A stretch of 64,000 nt of DNA. It comes from an uncultured Prevotellaceae bacterium. GTDB lineage: Bacteria; Bacteroidota; Bacteroidia; Bacteroidales; Bacteroidaceae. The stretch spans positions 30,063 through 94,062 of the forward strand of contig CAMNIN010000008.1 in the NCBI GenBank assembly GCA_946540735.1, given 5' to 3'. Under the pieces are notes generated by a model. The model worked only from the letters and a program-made list of their open reading frames with translations, made no database searches and had not been told where the DNA came from. Shown here one piece after another: positions 8,956-17,566 of this stretch (position 1 is its first letter; the number at the start of each line of letters is the position of its first letter). The translations under genes and the position numbers were made by a program.

Positions 8956-9017
8956 AGAATAAATCATCATAATAAAAGCAGGGATCTGTCCCTGCTTTTA
9001 TTATGATGATTTATTCT
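8956..9017. terminator. Perfect 29-bp inverted repeat with 4-nt loop (probable bidirectional terminator)
   Basis: AGAATAAATCATCATAATAAAAGCAGGGA-TCTG-TCCCTGCTTTTATTATGATGATTTATTCT between convergent genes. Confidence 0.85.
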
Positions 9018-9052
9018 AAGACAATTCAAAATGAACTGATACATTTCTCATC

Positions 9053-10621
9053 TCACAACTGTTCTATCCGGCAATCGTGGGTCTTGTGCTCACGGTCGTA
9101 GTTGATGCCCACGAGCAGGAGGTTGCCGGCATACTGCGCCACTTTGTCGGGATACTGGCGGCGGTGGATCTGGGCGATGGCCGAGTCGGTGTCGCGGTTG
9201 TATTTCAGTTCCACCACTATCGCGGGCGAATCAACATTCTTGCGGGGGATAAACACCAGATCGGCGAAGCCTTTGCCCGTAGGCAGTTCACGGTGGATGA
9301 CGTAGTCATTCCGGGCGGAGTAATAGGCGAGGCTCAGCACGCAGGCCAGCGAGTTCTCGTTGTTGTCGCTGAGGATACTCGTGTTTTCATCGTGTGCCGC
9401 ATCGATGAAACGTGCCACGGCCTCCTCGTCGCGGTCGAGCGTGGCTTGAAGGAGTTGTTTCGACTGTTGTATGGCCTCCACCACGGGCTGCCAGTTGTTT
9501 GCTTTCACGGCGTTCACCATCTCTCCTGCCACCTCACGGTTGGGGATGTAGCACTCGCTTTCTTTCCAATCGTAAGACAGGTAACCTAAATGGATAAGCA
9601 CTGTCAGAACATCGTCGAGACTGTGGATGACCGACATGTCGTTCTGAAAGCCTGTGGGGTCAACAGAACTGTGGTCACCTGCCAGCATGCGGATGATGTC
9701 ATCTTTTAAACCCTCATAGTTCATCTGAATGTAATCGGTTACGGCATCGAAGGCCCCCGTTCTTCCCCAATAACTTTTGCAACGTCGGCGACTTACAGCC
9801 TGCATCACGGAATTAGGATTGAACATCGATGGCTCATCGCCAATCTGATACCCGTCATACCATTTTACCAGTTCGTCGAAGTCCATGCCATATTTCTCAG
9901 CCAAAGTCCTCACCTCATCCTTTGTGAAGCCGAAAAAATGAGCCATATTTCCAGGTTCCACCATCGAGTACTCGATGAAATTGTTGAGTGCCGACTCCGT
10001 CTTGTATTTCTTGATGGGCAGGATGCCTGTCATATAGACGCCGGCAAATACACGGCTTGCATTTACCTCCTTGAACATCCGGCGCAGCCAGTTGACGTAG
10101 CGGTCCATGGCCGATGTGCCTTGCTTGAACTCACGGCAGATGGCGTCCCACTCGTCGATGATGAAAAAGAAACGGTCGCCGGTCTTCTCCGTGATGCGTA
10201 TCAGACAACCCATCAGGTCATCGTCGGGCCTGATTTCAACATCAGCATACAACCTGAGCACATCGGCTCTCAACTCCGCATCAATCTTCTCAACAATACT
10301 GTCATCATGGAAACGGGTGACGAAAGCGGTCATGTCGAGGTAGATGACGGGGTATTTGTTGAGGTGTTTCTCAAAGGAAGGGTCTTGGGCGGCCTGCAGG
10401 TCAGCAAACAAACTGCGGGAGTCGCAGGAGCGGTCGTAATAGGCACACAGCATCTTAGCCGCCATCGACTTGCCGAAACGGCGGCAGCGGGAGACACAAC
10501 TGAAACATTGCTCCGTGAAAAGCGTTTTGTTGACCACGGGTATCAGCCCTGATTTGTCAACATATTCGCTGTTGCGGATTACTTGAAATCCCACGTTCCC
10601 GATATTGATGTAAGTTCCCAT
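9053..10621 (-). CDS. AAA-ATPase-like / PD-(D/E)XK nuclease superfamily protein
   Basis: GTYINIGNVGFQVIRNSEYVDKSGLIPVVN..RRFGKSMAAKML, FIIDEWDAI, C-terminal KGFADLVFIPRKNVDSPAIVVELKYN (PD-(D/E)XK-like). Start M20 of the supplied 10678 ORF preferred. Confidence 0.87.
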   Translation of the reverse strand: MGTYINIGNVGFQVIRNSEYVDKSGLIPVVNKTLFTEQCFSCVSRCRRFGKSMAAKMLCAYYDRSCDSRSLFADLQAAQDPSFEKHLNKYPVIYLDMTAFVTRFHDDSIVEKIDAELRADVLRLYADVEIRPDDDLMGCLIRITEKTGDRFFFIIDEWDAICREFKQGTSAMDRYVNWLRRMFKEVNASRVFAGVYMTGILPIKKYKTESALNNFIEYSMVEPGNMAHFFGFTKDEVRTLAEKYGMDFDELVKWYDGYQIGDEPSMFNPNSVMQAVSRRRCKSYWGRTGAFDAVTDYIQMNYEGLKDDIIRMLAGDHSSVDPTGFQNDMSVIHSLDDVLTVLIHLGYLSYDWKESECYIPNREVAGEMVNAVKANNWQPVVEAIQQSKQLLQATLDRDEEAVARFIDAAHDENTSILSDNNENSLACVLSLAYYSARNDYVIHRELPTGKGFADLVFIPRKNVDSPAIVVELKYNRDTDSAIAQIHRRQYPDKVAQYAGNLLLVGINYDREHKTHDCRIEQL

Positions 10622-10740
10622 GATGGTAATATCCTTTTTTTGATGAGTCACTGCAAATATAACAAAAGCCGGAGACAATTCAAAATGAAATCATTCATTT
10701 TTATTGTGATGTCCAACATTCACCTCATATTCCACATGAT

Positions 10741-10768
10741 AAGACGCCGCAATGCGACGTCTCTACAT
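10741..10768. repeat. Dispersed palindromic repeat copy
   Basis: agacgccgcaatgcgacgtctctaca. Confidence 0.75.
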
Positions 10769-10974
10769 CCCTCCCCAATTATCCCTCTCTCTTGGGGAGA
10801 GGCCAGGTGAGGGGGAGAAGTCAGCGTATTTACAGAATTGGATTCCATGAAAAATTGCAATAATTTTTGGAATGTCATCGTAAATTGCTTATATTTGTAG
10901 GAAATTTGCTGAATCCAGTCATTTTCGACACAGCATAGCAGTAATATCCAATTGCAAGAAAGGAGGCTTTCAAC

Positions 10975-11310
10975 ATGGGAAAATATATCAACCCCTACAC
11001 CGATTTCGGCTTTAAGAAGCTCCTCGAGCAAGCCGAGATTGCTCGCCTGACAGATGACGAGCGCCGCGATTACGAGGAGAGTGTGAAAGTCTATCGCGAT
11101 CTCTTCGGAGTGATGAGCACCACCGAGCGGAAAGGAGTGGAGAAAGGACTGGAGCAAGGCAGAGCAGAAGGCAGAGCGGAAGGCAGAGTGGAAGGCCGCA
11201 CGGAAGAGAAGAAGGATATAGCTCGCAAGATGAAAACGATGGGCGTAGATATCAAAGTAATCTCCCAAGCAACCGGCCTGACACCTGAAGAAATAGAAAA
11301 TTTGGAATGA
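10975..11310 (+). CDS. Rpn-family protein with internal in-frame deletion of the catalytic core (mini-Rpn)
   Basis: MGKYINPYTDFGFKK joined directly to LLEQAEIARLTDDERRDYEESVKVYRDLF...GRAEGRAEGRVEGRTEEKKDIARKMK; both parts align with the ends of the full-length Rpn ORFs at 13259 and 14370. Confidence 0.75.
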   Translation: MGKYINPYTDFGFKKLLEQAEIARLTDDERRDYEESVKVYRDLFGVMSTTERKGVEKGLEQGRAEGRAEGRVEGRTEEKKDIARKMKTMGVDIKVISQATGLTPEEIENLE

Positions 11311-11342
11311 TAAAAGCAGGGATTCGTCCCTGCTTTTATCAT
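11307..11342 (+). terminator. Terminator hairpin with TTCG loop overlapping the mini-Rpn stop codon
   Basis: ATGATAAAAGCAGGGA-TTCG-TCCCTGCTTTTATCAT, 16-bp perfect stem. Confidence 0.75.
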
Positions 11343-11409
11343 GATGATTTCCGAAAAGACATTTTACTATTCTGGAAAATGATCATCATGTAACCTTTTA
11401 TTTGTGACT

Positions 11410-12071
11410 TTACACAGTTTGAACGATTTGGAACAGTTCTGTCATGCTTTTAGCTATATCTTCAGGTAAAGGTATGGGACGATAAGCAAGTTGGCTGAGT
11501 TCTCTTACGTAATTAGTACGCAATTCTGTCCAAATCTTTGGAAAAAACTTTAGCAAGGGAGCATCGTAAATTTCCTTTCCTTGCCAGTCTTTTGGGGTGT
11601 CAAATAGAGATTGGTCATGTCGCCAGAGATCATGCAAGTCTGACAAAAAGTTCTTACTGAGATATTCTTGGCATTTTGTGTCGCTCAACAGAGCATGAAG
11701 GTCGTAAAAGTGGCGTATTTTCTTGTTCAAGCCCTCCAACGGTTGAGGTGTGAAAGAAAAACGTAGCAACGATACTAACTTTTCACAGAATGTCTGTCGC
11801 ATGTCGAGGACATTCAATTCAAAGGGAGCCATATCCCACTCCTCCAGAAGTTGTTCATTCCCTGTTTCATTAAGAAACTGCGTGATGAAGCTTTCTATCT
11901 CCATCTTGACATATGGATACGGATTTGTTTCGCCAGTGGTGTTCTAGAGAGCTGTTGGAGGATTTTGGTTATCCAGTAATCTTTCTCTATATAAACGGGG
12001 GTGATGTCAAGGTGCTCAGAAGCAGCACGTATGACATCAGAGAACTGTTGTGCATTGTTGTCGAGTGTCAT
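11410..12071 (-). pseudogene. AbiEii/AbiGii-type nucleotidyltransferase toxin, disrupted by internal deletion and frameshift
   Basis: N-terminal fragment from ATG 12071: MTLDNNAQQFSDVIRAASEHLDITPVYIEKDYWITKILQQLSRTPLA, then in another frame NPYPYVKMEIESFITQFLNETGNEQLLEEWDMAPFELNVLDMRQTFCEKLVSLLRFS...IRHFYDLHALL. No GGTxLS/DxD nucleotidyltransferase core is present between them. Confidence 0.75.
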
Positions 12072-12802
12072 ACGATTCTAAAAATTTTAGTGTTTAATAC
12101 CTTTTTTGTTAAACCAACCTTATATATGGTAATAGGGTTGAGTGAGTCTCTCAACGTCAGTGCTTTCTCTTCACCATAAAGGTCTTCCATGATTGCTCCT
12201 AAGATAGCTCTCGTCATAGGAGTGTATTTCATAGAAAGCTTGATAATTAGGTCAATACTTTTCTCATCAAGTGATTTAACGATAGATTTGATTCTATTGT
12301 ATGAGATGTCTGGGGTTGAGTCTGGGATATGCTTTATTTTTTTGATAGAATCAAGCAGTTGGAGCAAAGGTATGTTGCTTTTATTTATTATATTAGCCTG
12401 TTGTACAAATCGAATTGTAAAAACGCCCCTGCGGGTATTATTCTTTTTCCCATTCACACCAATCTCAATGATGTTGGATATTTGCGTGGTTAATCCTAAC
12501 TGCCCAAAAATGGAAATGCCAGTTAGGTAGCCTACGACCTGCCCTTCTTTCTCCAATAAATCCTTCACGATTTCTTCTTGAGTGGGTTTTAGGTCGCCGA
12601 ACATTGTTCGTTTTGGCTTATAGAAACGTCCTTTGGAAAGTCGCTTGATGACACCACTTTTTGCCATACGGTTCAGTTTGCGTATAACATTACCACTGGA
12701 CTCTGGAGGCAATCCCAAGTCGCGATACGTGAACACATAGTCGGTGCGAAATAAACTCACAGCCTCCTCTACCTCTTTTGACTGTAACATATAATCTGTC
12801 AA
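12068..12802 (-). CDS. AbiEi-type antitoxin (DUF6088-like)
   Basis: N-terminal winged-helix-like region FTYRDLGLPPESSGNVIRKLNRMAKSGVIKRLSKGRFYKP; ATGA overlap with the AbiEii start. Confidence 0.75.
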   Translation of the reverse strand: MTDYMLQSKEVEEAVSLFRTDYVFTYRDLGLPPESSGNVIRKLNRMAKSGVIKRLSKGRFYKPKRTMFGDLKPTQEEIVKDLLEKEGQVVGYLTGISIFGQLGLTTQISNIIEIGVNGKKNNTRRGVFTIRFVQQANIINKSNIPLLQLLDSIKKIKHIPDSTPDISYNRIKSIVKSLDEKSIDLIIKLSMKYTPMTRAILGAIMEDLYGEEKALTLRDSLNPITIYKVGLTKKVLNTKIFRIV

Positions 12803-13044: not shown

Positions 13045-13164
13045 TCCCGGCCGGTGGCCGATTGAATATGAAGTCCGGCTTCGCCGATTTGAAATCCTTG
13101 CTTAGGCAAGCGTTCCTTCGGGCCGAGCGGAAAATACAAGCGCCCCTCCGGTCCGATAAAAAAT

Positions 13165-14274
13165 GTAGAGACGTCACATTGGGGCGTCTCCTGCCATATA
13201 GGATATAAAGAGCGAGCTGGCCGAGAATGAACAAGCAGGGACATGATTCCTGCTTGTTTCATTCAATTCCCTCGATGTCTTCCGCCGTCAAGCCAGTAGC
13301 CTGGGCGATCAGATCCACGCCCATGCCCATGCTCTTCATCTTTCGGGCAATATCCATTTTCTCCTCAGCACGGCCTTCTACCAATCCTTCCGCACGGCCC
13401 TCTTCCCGGCCTTTGCGCTCGGCTGTGTTGACGACGTTGAAGAGGTCGCGGTACACCTTCACACTTTCCTCGTAGTCAAGCAACTCCTGCGGATTGAGCT
13501 TGGCGATCTCAGCCTGTTCAAAGAGCCGGGTGAAAATCCTTTCCTGCAACGCCTTCGGACGCTCCATCAGCCGGGTGAGATTGCGCAGGGCGAAGAGCCA
13601 CTTATCGAACATGGTCTCCAGTTCCTCCTCCGTCTTGCGAAACTTCGGCATCTCCAGATACACAAACGTGAGCTTGTCGTAGAAGACGTGCCTGTCGACC
13701 GTGTCCATCAGCTTGATCTCATGGTGCATGCAGTCGTCCGGGTATTCGTCGTCGGGGAACACGAAGTTGAGGATGCCCACAGTATAGACTCCCTTGAGCT
13801 GGTAGTCCCACTCGCCCCGCTTCGCCTGTTCGCGGATGGGGAACGTGGAGTAGTAGACGCTGCGGTCTTTGAAATAGTCCTGCTCGGCCTTCTGCATCTC
13901 GACGATGAAATACTCGCCCTCGGTGTTCTGGCAGTAGACGTCAAAGACGGCCTTGCGGTCGGTCACGCCGCTGCCCAGCTGCTCACAGTTCTTATAAGTG
14001 ATGTCGGTGATCACCTCATGACCGGAGAAAAGGGCGTTGAGGAAACTGATGAGCAGATCCTTGTTCATCTCGGTGCCGAAGAGCCGCTTGAAACCGAAAT
14101 CGGTGTAGGGGTTGATGTATCTCTCTCTGCTGTCGACCATGGTCACATGATTTTTCTGCGAAGATAGGTGATTTCCCGGTGATTTGCAAATAATTCGGCG
14201 GTATTTTTGAGAAAAAAACCTCCCCCAGCCTCTCCGTGAGAGGGGATGACTTCGCTAATACAGTTGATGAAAAT
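13165..14274. repeat. Tandem duplication unit 1 carrying Rpn gene
   Basis: Near-identical to the next ~1.1 kb; unit starts at a GTAGAGACGTCAC palindromic repeat. Confidence 0.85.
13259..14146 (-). CDS. Rpn family recombination-promoting nuclease / PD-(D/E)XK putative transposase, copy 1
   Basis: RYINPYTDFGFKRLFGTEMNKDLLISFLNALF...RKAVFDVYCQNTEGEYFIVEMQ is the Rpn/PDDEXK_2 signature. Confidence 0.92.
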   Translation of the reverse strand: MTMVDSRERYINPYTDFGFKRLFGTEMNKDLLISFLNALFSGHEVITDITYKNCEQLGSGVTDRKAVFDVYCQNTEGEYFIVEMQKAEQDYFKDRSVYYSTFPIREQAKRGEWDYQLKGVYTVGILNFVFPDDEYPDDCMHHEIKLMDTVDRHVFYDKLTFVYLEMPKFRKTEEELETMFDKWLFALRNLTRLMERPKALQERIFTRLFEQAEIAKLNPQELLDYEESVKVYRDLFNVVNTAERKGREEGRAEGLVEGRAEEKMDIARKMKSMGMGVDLIAQATGLTAEDIEGIE

Positions 14275-15361
14275 GTAGAGACGTCACATTGGGGCGTCTC
14301 CTGACATAGGGGGTATAAAGAGTTGAGCTGGCCGTGAATGAACAAGCAGGGACATGATTCCTGCTTGTTTCATTCGATTCCCCCAATGTCTTCCGCCGTC
14401 AAACCAGTAGCCTGGGCGATCAGATCCACGTCCATGCCCATGTTCTTCATCTTGCGGGCAATATCCATTTTCTCCTCTGCCCGGCCTTCTTCCCGACCTT
14501 TGCGCTCGGCTGTGTTGACGACGTTGAAGAGGTCGCGGTAGACCTTCACGCTTTCCTCGTAGTCAAGCAACTCCTGCGGATTGAGCTTGGCGATCTCCGC
14601 CTGTTCGAAGAGCCGGGTGAAAATCCTTTCCTGCAACGCCTTCGGACGCTCCATCAGCCGGGTGAGATTGCGCAGGGCGAAGAGCCACTTATCGAACATG
14701 GTCTCCAGTTCCTCCTCCGTCTTGCGAAACTTCGGCATCTCCAGATACACAAACGTGAGCTTGTCGTAGAAGACGTGCCTGTCGACCGTGTCCATCAGCT
14801 TGATCTCATGGTGCATGCAGTCGTCCGGGTATTCGTCGTCGGGGAACACGAAGTTGAGGATGCCCACAGTATAGACTCCCTTGAGCTGGTAGTCCCACTC
14901 GCCCCGCTTCGCCTGTTCGCGGATGGGGAACGTGGAGTAGTAGACGCTGCGGTCTTTGAAATAGTCCTGCTCGGCCTTCTGCATCTCGACGATGAAATAC
15001 TCGCCCTCGGTGTTCTGGCAGTAGACGTCAAAGACGGCCTTGCGGTCGGTCACGCCGCTGCCCAGCTGCTCACAGTTCTTATAAGTGATGTCGGTGATCA
15101 CCTCATGACCGGAGAAAAGGGCGTTGAGGAAACTGATGAGCAGATCCTTGTTCATCTCGGTGCCGAAGAGCCGCTTGAAACCGAAATCGGTGTAGGGGTT
15201 GATGTATCTCTCTCTGCTGTCGACCATGGTCACATGATTTTTCTGCGAAGATAGGTGATTTCCCGGTGATTTGCAAATAATTCGGCGGTATTTTTGAGAA
15301 AAAAACCTCCCCCAGCCTCTCCGTGAGAGGGGATGACTTCGCTAATACAGTTGACGAAAAT
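14275..15361. repeat. Tandem duplication unit 2 carrying Rpn gene
   Basis: Near-identical to 13165-14274, shorter mainly through a 24-nt in-frame difference in the GRAEG repeat region. Confidence 0.85.
14370..15233 (-). CDS. Rpn family recombination-promoting nuclease / PD-(D/E)XK putative transposase, copy 2
   Basis: Almost identical to the 13259 gene; lacks GLVEGRAE. Confidence 0.92.
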   Translation of the reverse strand: MTMVDSRERYINPYTDFGFKRLFGTEMNKDLLISFLNALFSGHEVITDITYKNCEQLGSGVTDRKAVFDVYCQNTEGEYFIVEMQKAEQDYFKDRSVYYSTFPIREQAKRGEWDYQLKGVYTVGILNFVFPDDEYPDDCMHHEIKLMDTVDRHVFYDKLTFVYLEMPKFRKTEEELETMFDKWLFALRNLTRLMERPKALQERIFTRLFEQAEIAKLNPQELLDYEESVKVYRDLFNVVNTAERKGREEGRAEEKMDIARKMKNMGMDVDLIAQATGLTAEDIGGIE

Positions 15362-15403
15362 GTAGAGACGTCACATTCTCGGATATCACAAAATCAATTA
15401 AAT

Positions 15404-15429
15404 GTAGAGACGTCACATTGGGGCGTCTC
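15404..15429. repeat. Dispersed palindromic repeat copy (half copy also at 15362-15380)
   Basis: gtagagacgtcacattggggcgtctc. Confidence 0.8.
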
Positions 15430-15546
15430 TCCTTAGTAAAAGAGGAGAGTTTGAGGGATAGCTGCTGCCCTATGCGAAACAAGTAGGGATAATGTCTCAG
15501 CTTGCTCATTCTCGGCCTGCCCTGCATTTTATATTCCCTATGGCGG

Positions 15547-15572
15547 GAGACGCCCCAATGTGACGTCTCTAC
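15547..15572. repeat. Dispersed palindromic repeat copy next to the stop codon of the 15575 gene
   Basis: gagacgccccaatgtgacgtctctac. Confidence 0.8.
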
Positions 15573-15574
15573 AT

Positions 15575-17182
15575 TTATTCTTCAATAATATACCCCGTCA
15601 TGGCCCGCTTCTCGACGGAGAAGCCGATGCCGGCCTTCACGATGCGGCGGCCGTCGGTGGCGTAGCGCAGGGCATAGCCCCTGTCGTTGATCTGGTCGAG
15701 GGCGTCCTGCGCCGTGCCGTTGATCTTGAGCTCCATCACGTAGATCGTGTCGGGCATGAAGACCACCATGTCGGCCTTGCCCCGTGCGCACTTGACCTGC
15801 GTCTGCACGTAGACGTTGAGCATGGAGAAGATGAGGTAGAACGACCACTCGTAGAAACCCTCCGCGGTGGAGACCTCCTCGAGCTTCTTCTTGAATCCCT
15901 CGACGTAGGGCAGCTCCTCCAGGTAGGCCTGCAGCTCACGCAGGGCCAGGTCGGTGTCGTCGGCGCGCAGGGCCTTCCAGAAGCGGGCGGCGAAGCCCAT
16001 CTGCACGTCGCTGCCCTCAATGCCCGATATGATGGGCAGAAGGCCCTCGGTGAACCCCACGCGCACCTCCTTGTTGGGGATGCCAAGAGTGAATATCTCC
16101 CCTAGTGGGTCATAATCCTTGATGGTCATGTACCCGCTCTGATAGAGCAGGGGCAGTGCGTCGAACATGTTCTCCGTGGGCTGGTCGAAGGCCGAGGCCG
16201 GGGCCTCGAGGCCGTCGAGCCTGGTGATGTCGGTGCGGAACCGGCGCATCTGGCGGATGAGGTAGGACGGCGTGCCGCTCTCAAACCAGAAATTACGCAG
16301 TTCGCACTCGTTGAAAGCCTTCATCAGGCTGAAGGGGTTGTAGATGTCGGGCGACTTGCGTGAGAAGCGGTAGCCGTCGTAGGTCTCGCGGAGCATCTCG
16401 CGCATCTCCCGGGAAGACACCTCATACTCCTTGGCCAACCGCTCCACGTCGGGCTGCATCTGGGTGTCGATCTCCTCGCCTGTGATGCCGCAGATGGTGG
16501 CGAACTGCGGGTCGAGCGAGATGTTGGTGATGTTGTTGAAGCATGAGAAGGCACTGGGTTGAGGAAACTTGGTGATGCCTGTGATGAAGCAGAACCGGAT
16601 CATGGCCTCATAGGCCTTGAGGCACTGGTAGAACTCCTGCATCACGCGGCGGTATCCGTCGAGCCGCTCGTCCTCATGGAGCACCTCGAGCAGCGGTGCG
16701 TCGTACTCGTCGATGACGACGACCACCTGCGAGCCGGTCTTCTCGAAGGCTCGGCGGATGAGGCCGCTGAACACCTTTCCCGGAGTCGTTTCCGAGGGAT
16801 CTTCGCCATAATTCCTGATGTATGGCTTCAACTGCAGCATCAACGCTCCGCGTAGCTCATTCTCGTTTTCCTGCGCCTTTGCCATGCTCACGTCGATGTG
16901 GAGCACGGGATAGAGTTTCCACTCCTTCTCGAGCTCCATCACTCTGAGTCCCTCGAAGAGGTCGCGCCGCCCCTCGAAGAAGGAGCAGAGCGTGGTGGTG
17001 AGCAGCGACTTGCCGAACCGCCTCGGGCGGCTTAGGAAGACAAAGGGACTCATGCGGGTCATCCGCCACATCAGGTCGGTCTTGTCAATATATACGTAGC
17101 CTTCCTCCCTCAAACGGGAGAAGGTCTGTATGCCGACGGGGTAGCGCCGTTCGTCGGGATAGGGGTTGTTCAGATGGCTCAT
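15575..17182 (-). CDS. AAA-ATPase-like / PD-(D/E)XK nuclease superfamily protein
   Basis: RRYPVGIQTFSRLREEGYVYIDKTDLMWRM..FLSRPRRFGKSLL; VVVIDEYDAPLLE; C-terminal GKADMVVFMPDTIYVMELKIN. Start M10 of the supplied ORF preferred. Confidence 0.92.
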   Translation of the reverse strand: MSHLNNPYPDERRYPVGIQTFSRLREEGYVYIDKTDLMWRMTRMSPFVFLSRPRRFGKSLLTTTLCSFFEGRRDLFEGLRVMELEKEWKLYPVLHIDVSMAKAQENENELRGALMLQLKPYIRNYGEDPSETTPGKVFSGLIRRAFEKTGSQVVVVIDEYDAPLLEVLHEDERLDGYRRVMQEFYQCLKAYEAMIRFCFITGITKFPQPSAFSCFNNITNISLDPQFATICGITGEEIDTQMQPDVERLAKEYEVSSREMREMLRETYDGYRFSRKSPDIYNPFSLMKAFNECELRNFWFESGTPSYLIRQMRRFRTDITRLDGLEAPASAFDQPTENMFDALPLLYQSGYMTIKDYDPLGEIFTLGIPNKEVRVGFTEGLLPIISGIEGSDVQMGFAARFWKALRADDTDLALRELQAYLEELPYVEGFKKKLEEVSTAEGFYEWSFYLIFSMLNVYVQTQVKCARGKADMVVFMPDTIYVMELKINGTAQDALDQINDRGYALRYATDGRRIVKAGIGFSVEKRAMTGYIIEE

Positions 17183-17362
17183 GGTCACTCCTTGATTTTG
17201 TCTGTTCACGATATCCTCTTATCACCGGGAGTCGATGGATCCCGGCCCATTTCCGCCGCTAAGATAGTGAAAAATATCGTTCTCTCAAAGAAATAATCGA
17301 TTTTTGTGATACCCGACAATGCGATGTCTCCACATTTATTTGATTATGTGATATCCGAGAAT

Positions 17363-17446
17363 GTAGAGACGTCGCATTGAGGCGTCTCCGCCATAATGCT
17401 TTGGGATGAAATAACAACGAGAGACGCCCCAATGTGACGTCTCTAC
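17363..17446. repeat. Two oppositely oriented copies of the dispersed palindromic repeat
   Basis: gtagagacgtcgcattgaggcgtctcc (17363-17389) and gagacgccccaatgtgacgtctctac (17421-17446). Confidence 0.8.
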
Positions 17447-17566
17447 ATTTTTTATCGGACCGGAGGGGCGCTTGTATTTTTCGCTCGCCCCGAATGGACG
17501 CTTGCCTAAGCAAGATTTTTCAATCGTCGCAGCCGAACTTCATTTTCAATCGGCCACCGGCCGGGA

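What the first reader, a model, noticed from the sequence alone, without database searches (positions are those of the whole stretch)
10975..11310. Catalytically gutted Rpn gene (mini-Rpn) formed by an exact in-frame internal deletion
The 111-aa ORF joins the first ~15 residues of an Rpn nuclease (YINPYTDFGFKK) to its C-terminal region (LLEQAEIARL...GRAEGRAEGR...), skipping the PD-(D/E)XK core. In the full-length neighbours the same two points carry an 8-bp direct repeat (CGGCTCTT, at 14079-14086 and 13521-13528 in copy 1) exactly 558 bp (186 codons) apart, so recombination between them removes the core and keeps the frame. E. coli Rpn genes are reported to encode internal small C-terminal products that block the full-length toxic nuclease. 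A free-standing C-terminal version here could act as such an inhibitor.
Basis: partly seen in the sequence, partly recalled or inferred. Interest (0 to 1): 0.72.

Follow-up and report, generated by a model that had tools for sequence, protein, structure and literature searches.

The report
Core-less Rpn gene, probable standalone inhibitor
A gut bacterium keeps a small working-looking gene that is a DNA-cutting toxin with its cutting part deleted, and the same kind of stripped-down gene has arisen many times in its relatives, most likely as an inhibitor of the full toxin.

Summary
ORF 10975-11310 (111 aa) joins the first 15 residues of an Rpn (PDDEXK_2) nuclease in frame to its C-terminal oligomerisation domain. 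It has its own conserved promoter, ribosome-binding site and terminator. The C-terminal part matches E. coli RpnA-S (PDB 7TH0, the proven antitoxin form) by profile and by fold. It is not a one-off. In about 400 congeneric genomes I found roughly 20 core-less Rpn genes; they are polyphyletic (one origin rejected, p about 1e-6), and most sit next to a different full-length Rpn in the tree. The commonest breakpoint is a [KR]-L-F motif encoded in register at both edges of the nuclease core. The window copy is under purifying selection: against its sister-genome orthologue it shows 11 synonymous and 3 nonsynonymous codon changes, P=0.0002. Free-standing RpnS genes are already known in E. coli (Zhong 2023), so this is a new variant of a known kind. 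The proposal that it blocks the two neighbouring Rpn proteins is only weakly supported: repeat-helix lengths differ (31 vs 23 and 15 residues), and the sister genome keeps the small gene with no full-length Rpn detected. My preferred reading is a standalone RpnS-like inhibitor whose target need not be the neighbours.

The parts
10866..10896 (+). Bacteroidota-type promoter of the small gene, TTG-N20-TATATTTG
   Evidence: present in G000 and conserved in G377; the pattern occurs 11 times on both strands of the 64-kb window. Consensus match only, not tested.
10959..10966 (+). Shine-Dalgarno AAAGGAGG, 8 nt before the ATG
   Evidence: identical in G377.
10975..11310 (+). Core-less Rpn gene (111 aa)
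   Evidence: (TIGR01784 positions 193-272, E 2e-11, below cut-off).
10975..11019 (+). Rpn N-terminal remnant MGKYINPYTDFGFKK
   Evidence: 86% complementary to the N-terminal codons of both full-length copies.
11014..11025 (+). Deletion junction (AAGAAGCTCCTC), the [KR]-L-F/L twin site
   Evidence: same site used in several relatives.
11137..11208 (+). Four-residue repeats (VEKG LEQG RAEG RAEG RVEG RTEE); three fewer in the sister genome
11185..11307 (+). RpnS-like end: end of long helix plus short helices
   Evidence: profile match to 7TH0 RpnA, E 6e-4; Foldseek rank 1 = 7TH0, probability 0.98, rmsd 0.9.
11307..11350 (.). Terminator-like hairpin at the gene end
   Evidence: -27.9 kcal/mol, z -6.5; near-identical in G377; a similar hairpin at 8956-9017.
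9053..10678 (-). Divergent AAA-ATPase_like/PDDEXK_9 gene, held together with the small gene in G377
   Evidence: 33 synonymous, 11 nonsynonymous codon changes.
13259..14146 (-). Full-length Rpn copy 1 (295 aa)
14370..15233 (-). Full-length Rpn copy 2 (287 aa), tandem duplicate of copy 1
   Evidence: 273 of 287 aligned codons identical.
14079..14086 (-). CGGCTCTT, N-terminal edge of the core in copy 1
13521..13528 (-). CGGCTCTT, C-terminal edge of the core in copy 1, 558 bp away

Best explanation
The gene is a functional small gene made by an old in-frame deletion of the nuclease core from an Rpn gene, and it makes a free-standing RpnS-like protein. The protein keeps the long repeat-bearing dimerisation helix and the C-terminal helices, and lacks every catalytic residue. 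By analogy with E. coli RpnA-S it would pair through the repeat helix with a full-length Rpn of matching helix length and hold its nuclease inactive, as a separately expressed antitoxin or dominant-negative partner. Shown: deletion structure, complete transcription unit by sequence, RpnS-domain match, purifying selection, repeated independent origin of the class. Inferred: expression, binding, inhibition, and which Rpn is the target.
For: In-frame join of Rpn N-terminus to C-terminal domain. Promoter, Shine-Dalgarno and terminator conserved in G377. Purifying selection: 11 synonymous vs 3 nonsynonymous of 99 codons, neutral expectation 9.9 nonsynonymous, P=0.0002, in line with the intact neighbour gene, 33 vs 11; a second orthologous pair, G038/G275, gives 4 vs 1, P=0.022. 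Profile match to RpnA-S 7TH0, E 6e-4, and 7TH0 is the top fold match. About 20 core-less Rpn genes keep start region and C-terminal domain in frame; they are polyphyletic and most are nearest a different full-length Rpn, so the form arises repeatedly. Repeat number varies by whole 4-residue units between G000 and G377, the hallmark of RpnS (PMC10327210).
Against: G377 (93% complete) keeps the gene but no full-length Rpn was found with two family models. Helix length differs from both neighbours (31 vs 23 and 15) and from the recognisable partner in every same-genome pair I could compare (G178, G291, G387; G100 measured against its near-twin G023). No expression data. The Foldseek E-value (0.72) is weak and the model is of moderate confidence (pLDDT 69). 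In-frame joining at the [KR]-L-F site follows from the repeats being in register, so it is not itself evidence of selection.
Confidence: 0.5

Rival explanations
1. Neutral remnant. Rpn is toxic, cells often lose its core by deletion at short repeats, and the leftover short ORF has no function.
For: Recurrent, scattered origin and visibly decaying examples: G611a, G032, G195. The adjacent AbiEii is a core-deleted, out-of-frame remnant. In-register repeats give in-frame products without selection.
Against: Purifying selection in two orthologous pairs, and conserved promoter, Shine-Dalgarno and terminator. Junctions without in-register repeats are also in frame and no out-of-frame deletion of the whole core was met, but the numbers are small.
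Confidence: 0.2
2. Orphan immunity. The small protein protects the host against Rpn nucleases brought in by plasmids, phages or neighbouring strains rather than pairing with a resident toxin.
For: G377 has the gene and no full-length Rpn; helix lengths do not match resident copies; rpn genes are horizontally mobile (PMC10327210).
Against: No incoming Rpn with a matching C-terminus was found in phage, viral or plasmid collections (the plasmid and one viral search used a relative's small protein as query).
Confidence: 0.17
3. DNA-binding regulator. The C-terminal helix-turn-helix-like end binds DNA and controls the divergent AAA/PDDEXK_9 gene or rpn genes.
For: Resolvase-type HTH_7 matches in 2 of 16 members; TrpR-like proteins among weak fold matches; conserved divergent pairing with the AAA/PDDEXK_9 gene in G377.
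Against: Other small Rpn genes have unrelated neighbours; the best structural match is RpnA-S itself.
Confidence: 0.08

Closest known systems
RpnS antitoxins of E. coli (RpnA-S, PDB 7TH0), translated from inside rpn genes (PMC10327210)
   Same: Same C-terminal domain by profile and fold; variable 4-residue repeats in the long helix; no nuclease core.
   Different: Here a separate gene with its own promoter that keeps the Rpn start and the first 15 residues; no internal start codon is conserved at one position in the full-length genes of this genus. Inhibition not tested.
Free-standing rpnS genes such as ypaA/rpnES next to rpnE in E. coli (PMC10327210)
   Same: Separate gene encoding only the C-terminal part of an Rpn; arose several times independently.
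   Different: Those are described as downstream copies of the C-terminal part, some annotated DUF4351. Here the gene is an internally deleted Rpn with N-terminus kept, usually away from its full-length relative, and no DUF4351 match.
Full-length Rpn / PDDEXK_2 (PF12784, TIGR01784) proteins
   Same: N-terminal 15 residues and C-terminal about 95 residues are homologous.
   Different: About 186 residues including the whole PD-(D/E)XK core are missing.

Membership tests
Rpn nuclease (PF12784/TIGR01784) | PD-(D/E)XK catalytic core | tested here: not met
   The core is deleted; Pfam PDDEXK_2 aligns only to profile positions 191-222, and TIGR01784 from position 193 on at 44 bits, below the 52.1 cut-off.
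RpnS antitoxin | Homology to the RpnS C-terminal helical domain | tested here: met
   Profile hit to 7TH0, E 6e-4, over 40 of 49 residues; Foldseek rank 1, probability 0.98, rmsd 0.9 over 38 columns.
RpnS antitoxin | Variable number of 4-residue repeats in the long helix | tested here: met
   Three units fewer in the G377 orthologue; variable in relatives.
RpnS antitoxin | Repeat number matches the Rpn it inhibits | tested here: not met
   31 residues vs 23 and 15 in the two neighbours. No other full-length Rpn was found in this genome. This counts against these two targets, not against an unknown one.
RpnS antitoxin | Binds and inhibits RpnL | not testable with these tools
   Needs co-expression or pull-down.
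RpnS antitoxin (intragenic type) | Translated from an internal start of a full-length gene | tested here: not met
   Separate transcription unit by sequence at 10866-11350.

The most novel reading that the evidence does not exclude
Rpn genes carry an in-register repeat (F-K-[KR]-L-F at one edge of the core, [KR]-L-F at the other) that makes core excision a recurrent, frame-preserving one-step conversion of a toxin gene into a stand-alone inhibitor gene. Some converted genes then persist without any resident toxin, as immunity against incoming Rpn systems.
Probability: 0.2. Interest if true: 0.75.

Novelty: new variant of a known kind. Interest (0 to 1): 0.5.

Why it matters
If right, a toxin gene can turn into its own antitoxin gene by one short-repeat deletion, and has done so repeatedly in one bacterial group. 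That gives a simple route for how separate antitoxin genes arise from gene-within-gene systems. The paired small and full-length genes in G178, G291, G387 and G023/G100, with repeat numbers that do not match, allow a direct test of the claim that repeat number sets specificity.

Tried and rejected
Derivation from the adjacent full-length copies: rejected, 67-69% C-terminal identity and different upstream DNA. A single ancient small-Rpn gene: rejected by the AU test (p 9e-7), also for the same-junction subset (p 8e-8) (few columns, many open forks). A conserved internal RpnS start in full-length Rpn of this genus: no single position is always a start codon, and the best candidate column is GTC in the window copies. 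DNA-level selection for the twin repeat: only marginal against synonymous shuffles (P=0.03). Phage carriage: the one junction-spanning phage hit (MT835698) lies in what looks like bacterial DNA filed as phage (fumarase, ABC transporter) and is a 44-aa broken ORF; two viral-contig scans found nothing. Rfam: no match. The Pfam hit DUF6243 is weak and rejected as a helix artefact.

Full report
Observation. The 111-aa ORF at 10975-11310 is present as described. Residues 1-15 match the N-terminus of the two full-length Rpn proteins nearby, and residues 16-111 match their C-terminal region (67-69% identity). The full-length neighbours are intact PDDEXK_2 proteins. The 8-bp repeat and the 558-bp distance are exact. 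The small gene has a complete transcription unit by sequence: a Bacteroidota-type promoter match TTG-N20-TATATTTG at 10866-10896, AAAGGAGG at 10959-10966, and a strong hairpin at the 3' end (z -6.5), all kept in the sister genome G377.

Origin. The window gene was not made from the two copies beside it: the junction codons, the C-terminal sequence and the upstream DNA differ. In the C-terminal tree they are nonetheless its nearest full-length relatives in my sample (97/86 support), so the deletion is probably old. For other genomes the parent is clear. The G100 small gene is 98% identical to the full-length gene of its near-twin genome G023 over 148 nt that include 75 nt upstream of the start, and its C-terminal part then maps to the same gene; G178, G291, G243, G387 and G347 behave likewise with lower identity. 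The two alignments overlap at the breakpoint by 16 nt (G100, G178, G291), 9 (G243), 4 (G387) and 2 (G347), as expected of deletion between short, sometimes imperfect, direct repeats. The repeat encodes F-K-[KR]-L-F before the core and [KR]-L-F after it, in register, so the product is in frame by construction. Across 36 full-length genes the exact run at this twin site is 2-16 nt, only slightly more than synonymous shuffles give (P=0.03). The predisposition therefore lies mostly in the protein motif, with no clear selection on the DNA.

How common. Among about 400 congeneric genomes, and further genera of the family, I found roughly 20 core-less Rpn genes that keep a start region and a C-terminal domain. 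Junctions include FGFKK|LFEQAE or close to it (G243, G291, G178, G067, G023/G100, G611), FGFK|LFDAAA (G387), YTDF|ERAE (G145), YINP|QAE (G032), INPYT|VAKF (G151), GFKK|SKAL (G207), FLNA|QELRD (G356), MATIE|DKVF (G347) and LDEI|HNLSR (G038/G275). A Phocaeicola massiliensis plasmid (OY726017) has an Rpn truncated at the repeats followed by a core-less one. A few listed cases (G112, G087, G320, G385) have N-termini too short to assign. Small genes are spread over the tree of C-terminal domains: at least 11 label changes on well-supported branches, and one origin rejected (p 9e-7; 72 columns for 55 rows, so individual forks are weak).

Selection. Between G000 and G377 the gene shows 11 synonymous and 3 nonsynonymous codon changes of 99; a neutral simulation expects 9.9 nonsynonymous (P=0.0002). 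The intact divergent AAA/PDDEXK_9 gene beside it shows 33 and 11. Both genomes share the same junction, so this change happened after the deletion. G038 and G275, which share another junction and the same neighbours, give 4 and 1 (P=0.022). Both pairs also differ by in-frame changes in the repeat region (three whole units in G000/G377, one in G038/G275).

What it does. The profile of 16 core-less proteins finds E. coli RpnA-S (7TH0), E 6e-4. The predicted structure (pLDDT 69) is one long helix with a small helical end, and its top PDB match is 7TH0 (probability 0.98, rmsd 0.9 over 38 columns, weak E 0.72). RpnS proteins bind and inhibit their full-length Rpn, with specificity that follows repeat number, and may be separate genes in E. 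coli (PMC10327210). The most likely function is therefore a stand-alone RpnS-like inhibitor. The target is open. The repeat helix is 31 residues against 23 and 15 in the neighbours, and differs from the recognisable partner in each pair I could compare. G377 keeps the gene with no full-length Rpn detected by two family models, though it is a 93%-complete assembly.

Verdict. Real, functional-looking, and a recurrent type: a new variant of the known free-standing RpnS. The mechanism is inferred, not shown. Frame preservation at the twin site must not be read as evidence of selection; the codon statistics and conserved signals carry that point.

Noticed in passing
window 11410-12071 (-): The AbiEii toxin next to the small Rpn gene is also core-deleted: about 57 N-terminal residues (12071-11895) are followed in another frame by the C-terminal part (PADLOC AbiEii model positions 140-280 of 283). 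The AbiEi partner 12068-12802 looks intact.
   Followed up: partly
window 8956-11350: A block of about 2.4 kb (AAA/PDDEXK_9 gene plus small Rpn, bounded by similar hairpins) is about 96% identical to G377, whereas neighbouring stretches match less well and in different arrangement; it may move as a cassette.
   Followed up: partly
window 10738-10773, 13160-13212, 14270-14322, 15357-15451, 15544-15579, 17305-17453: Dispersed short repeats GTAGAGACGTCACATTGGGGCGTCTC, often as inverted pairs, between genes of this region.
   Followed up: no
L173 1929-3321 (Phocaeicola massiliensis plasmid OY726017): An Rpn ending at the first repeat (242 aa) followed by a core-less Rpn that carries repeats and tail: a possible two-gene split of one Rpn.
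   Followed up: partly
phage record MT835698 (L171): Record filed as a phage carries fumarase, ABC transporter and peptidase-like genes and looks like bacterial chromosome.
   Followed up: partly
window 10975-11307: The protein matches PADLOC candidate family C3a178 'putative invertase' (90-position model, E 1.5e-7), which may itself be a set of small RpnS-like proteins.
   Followed up: no
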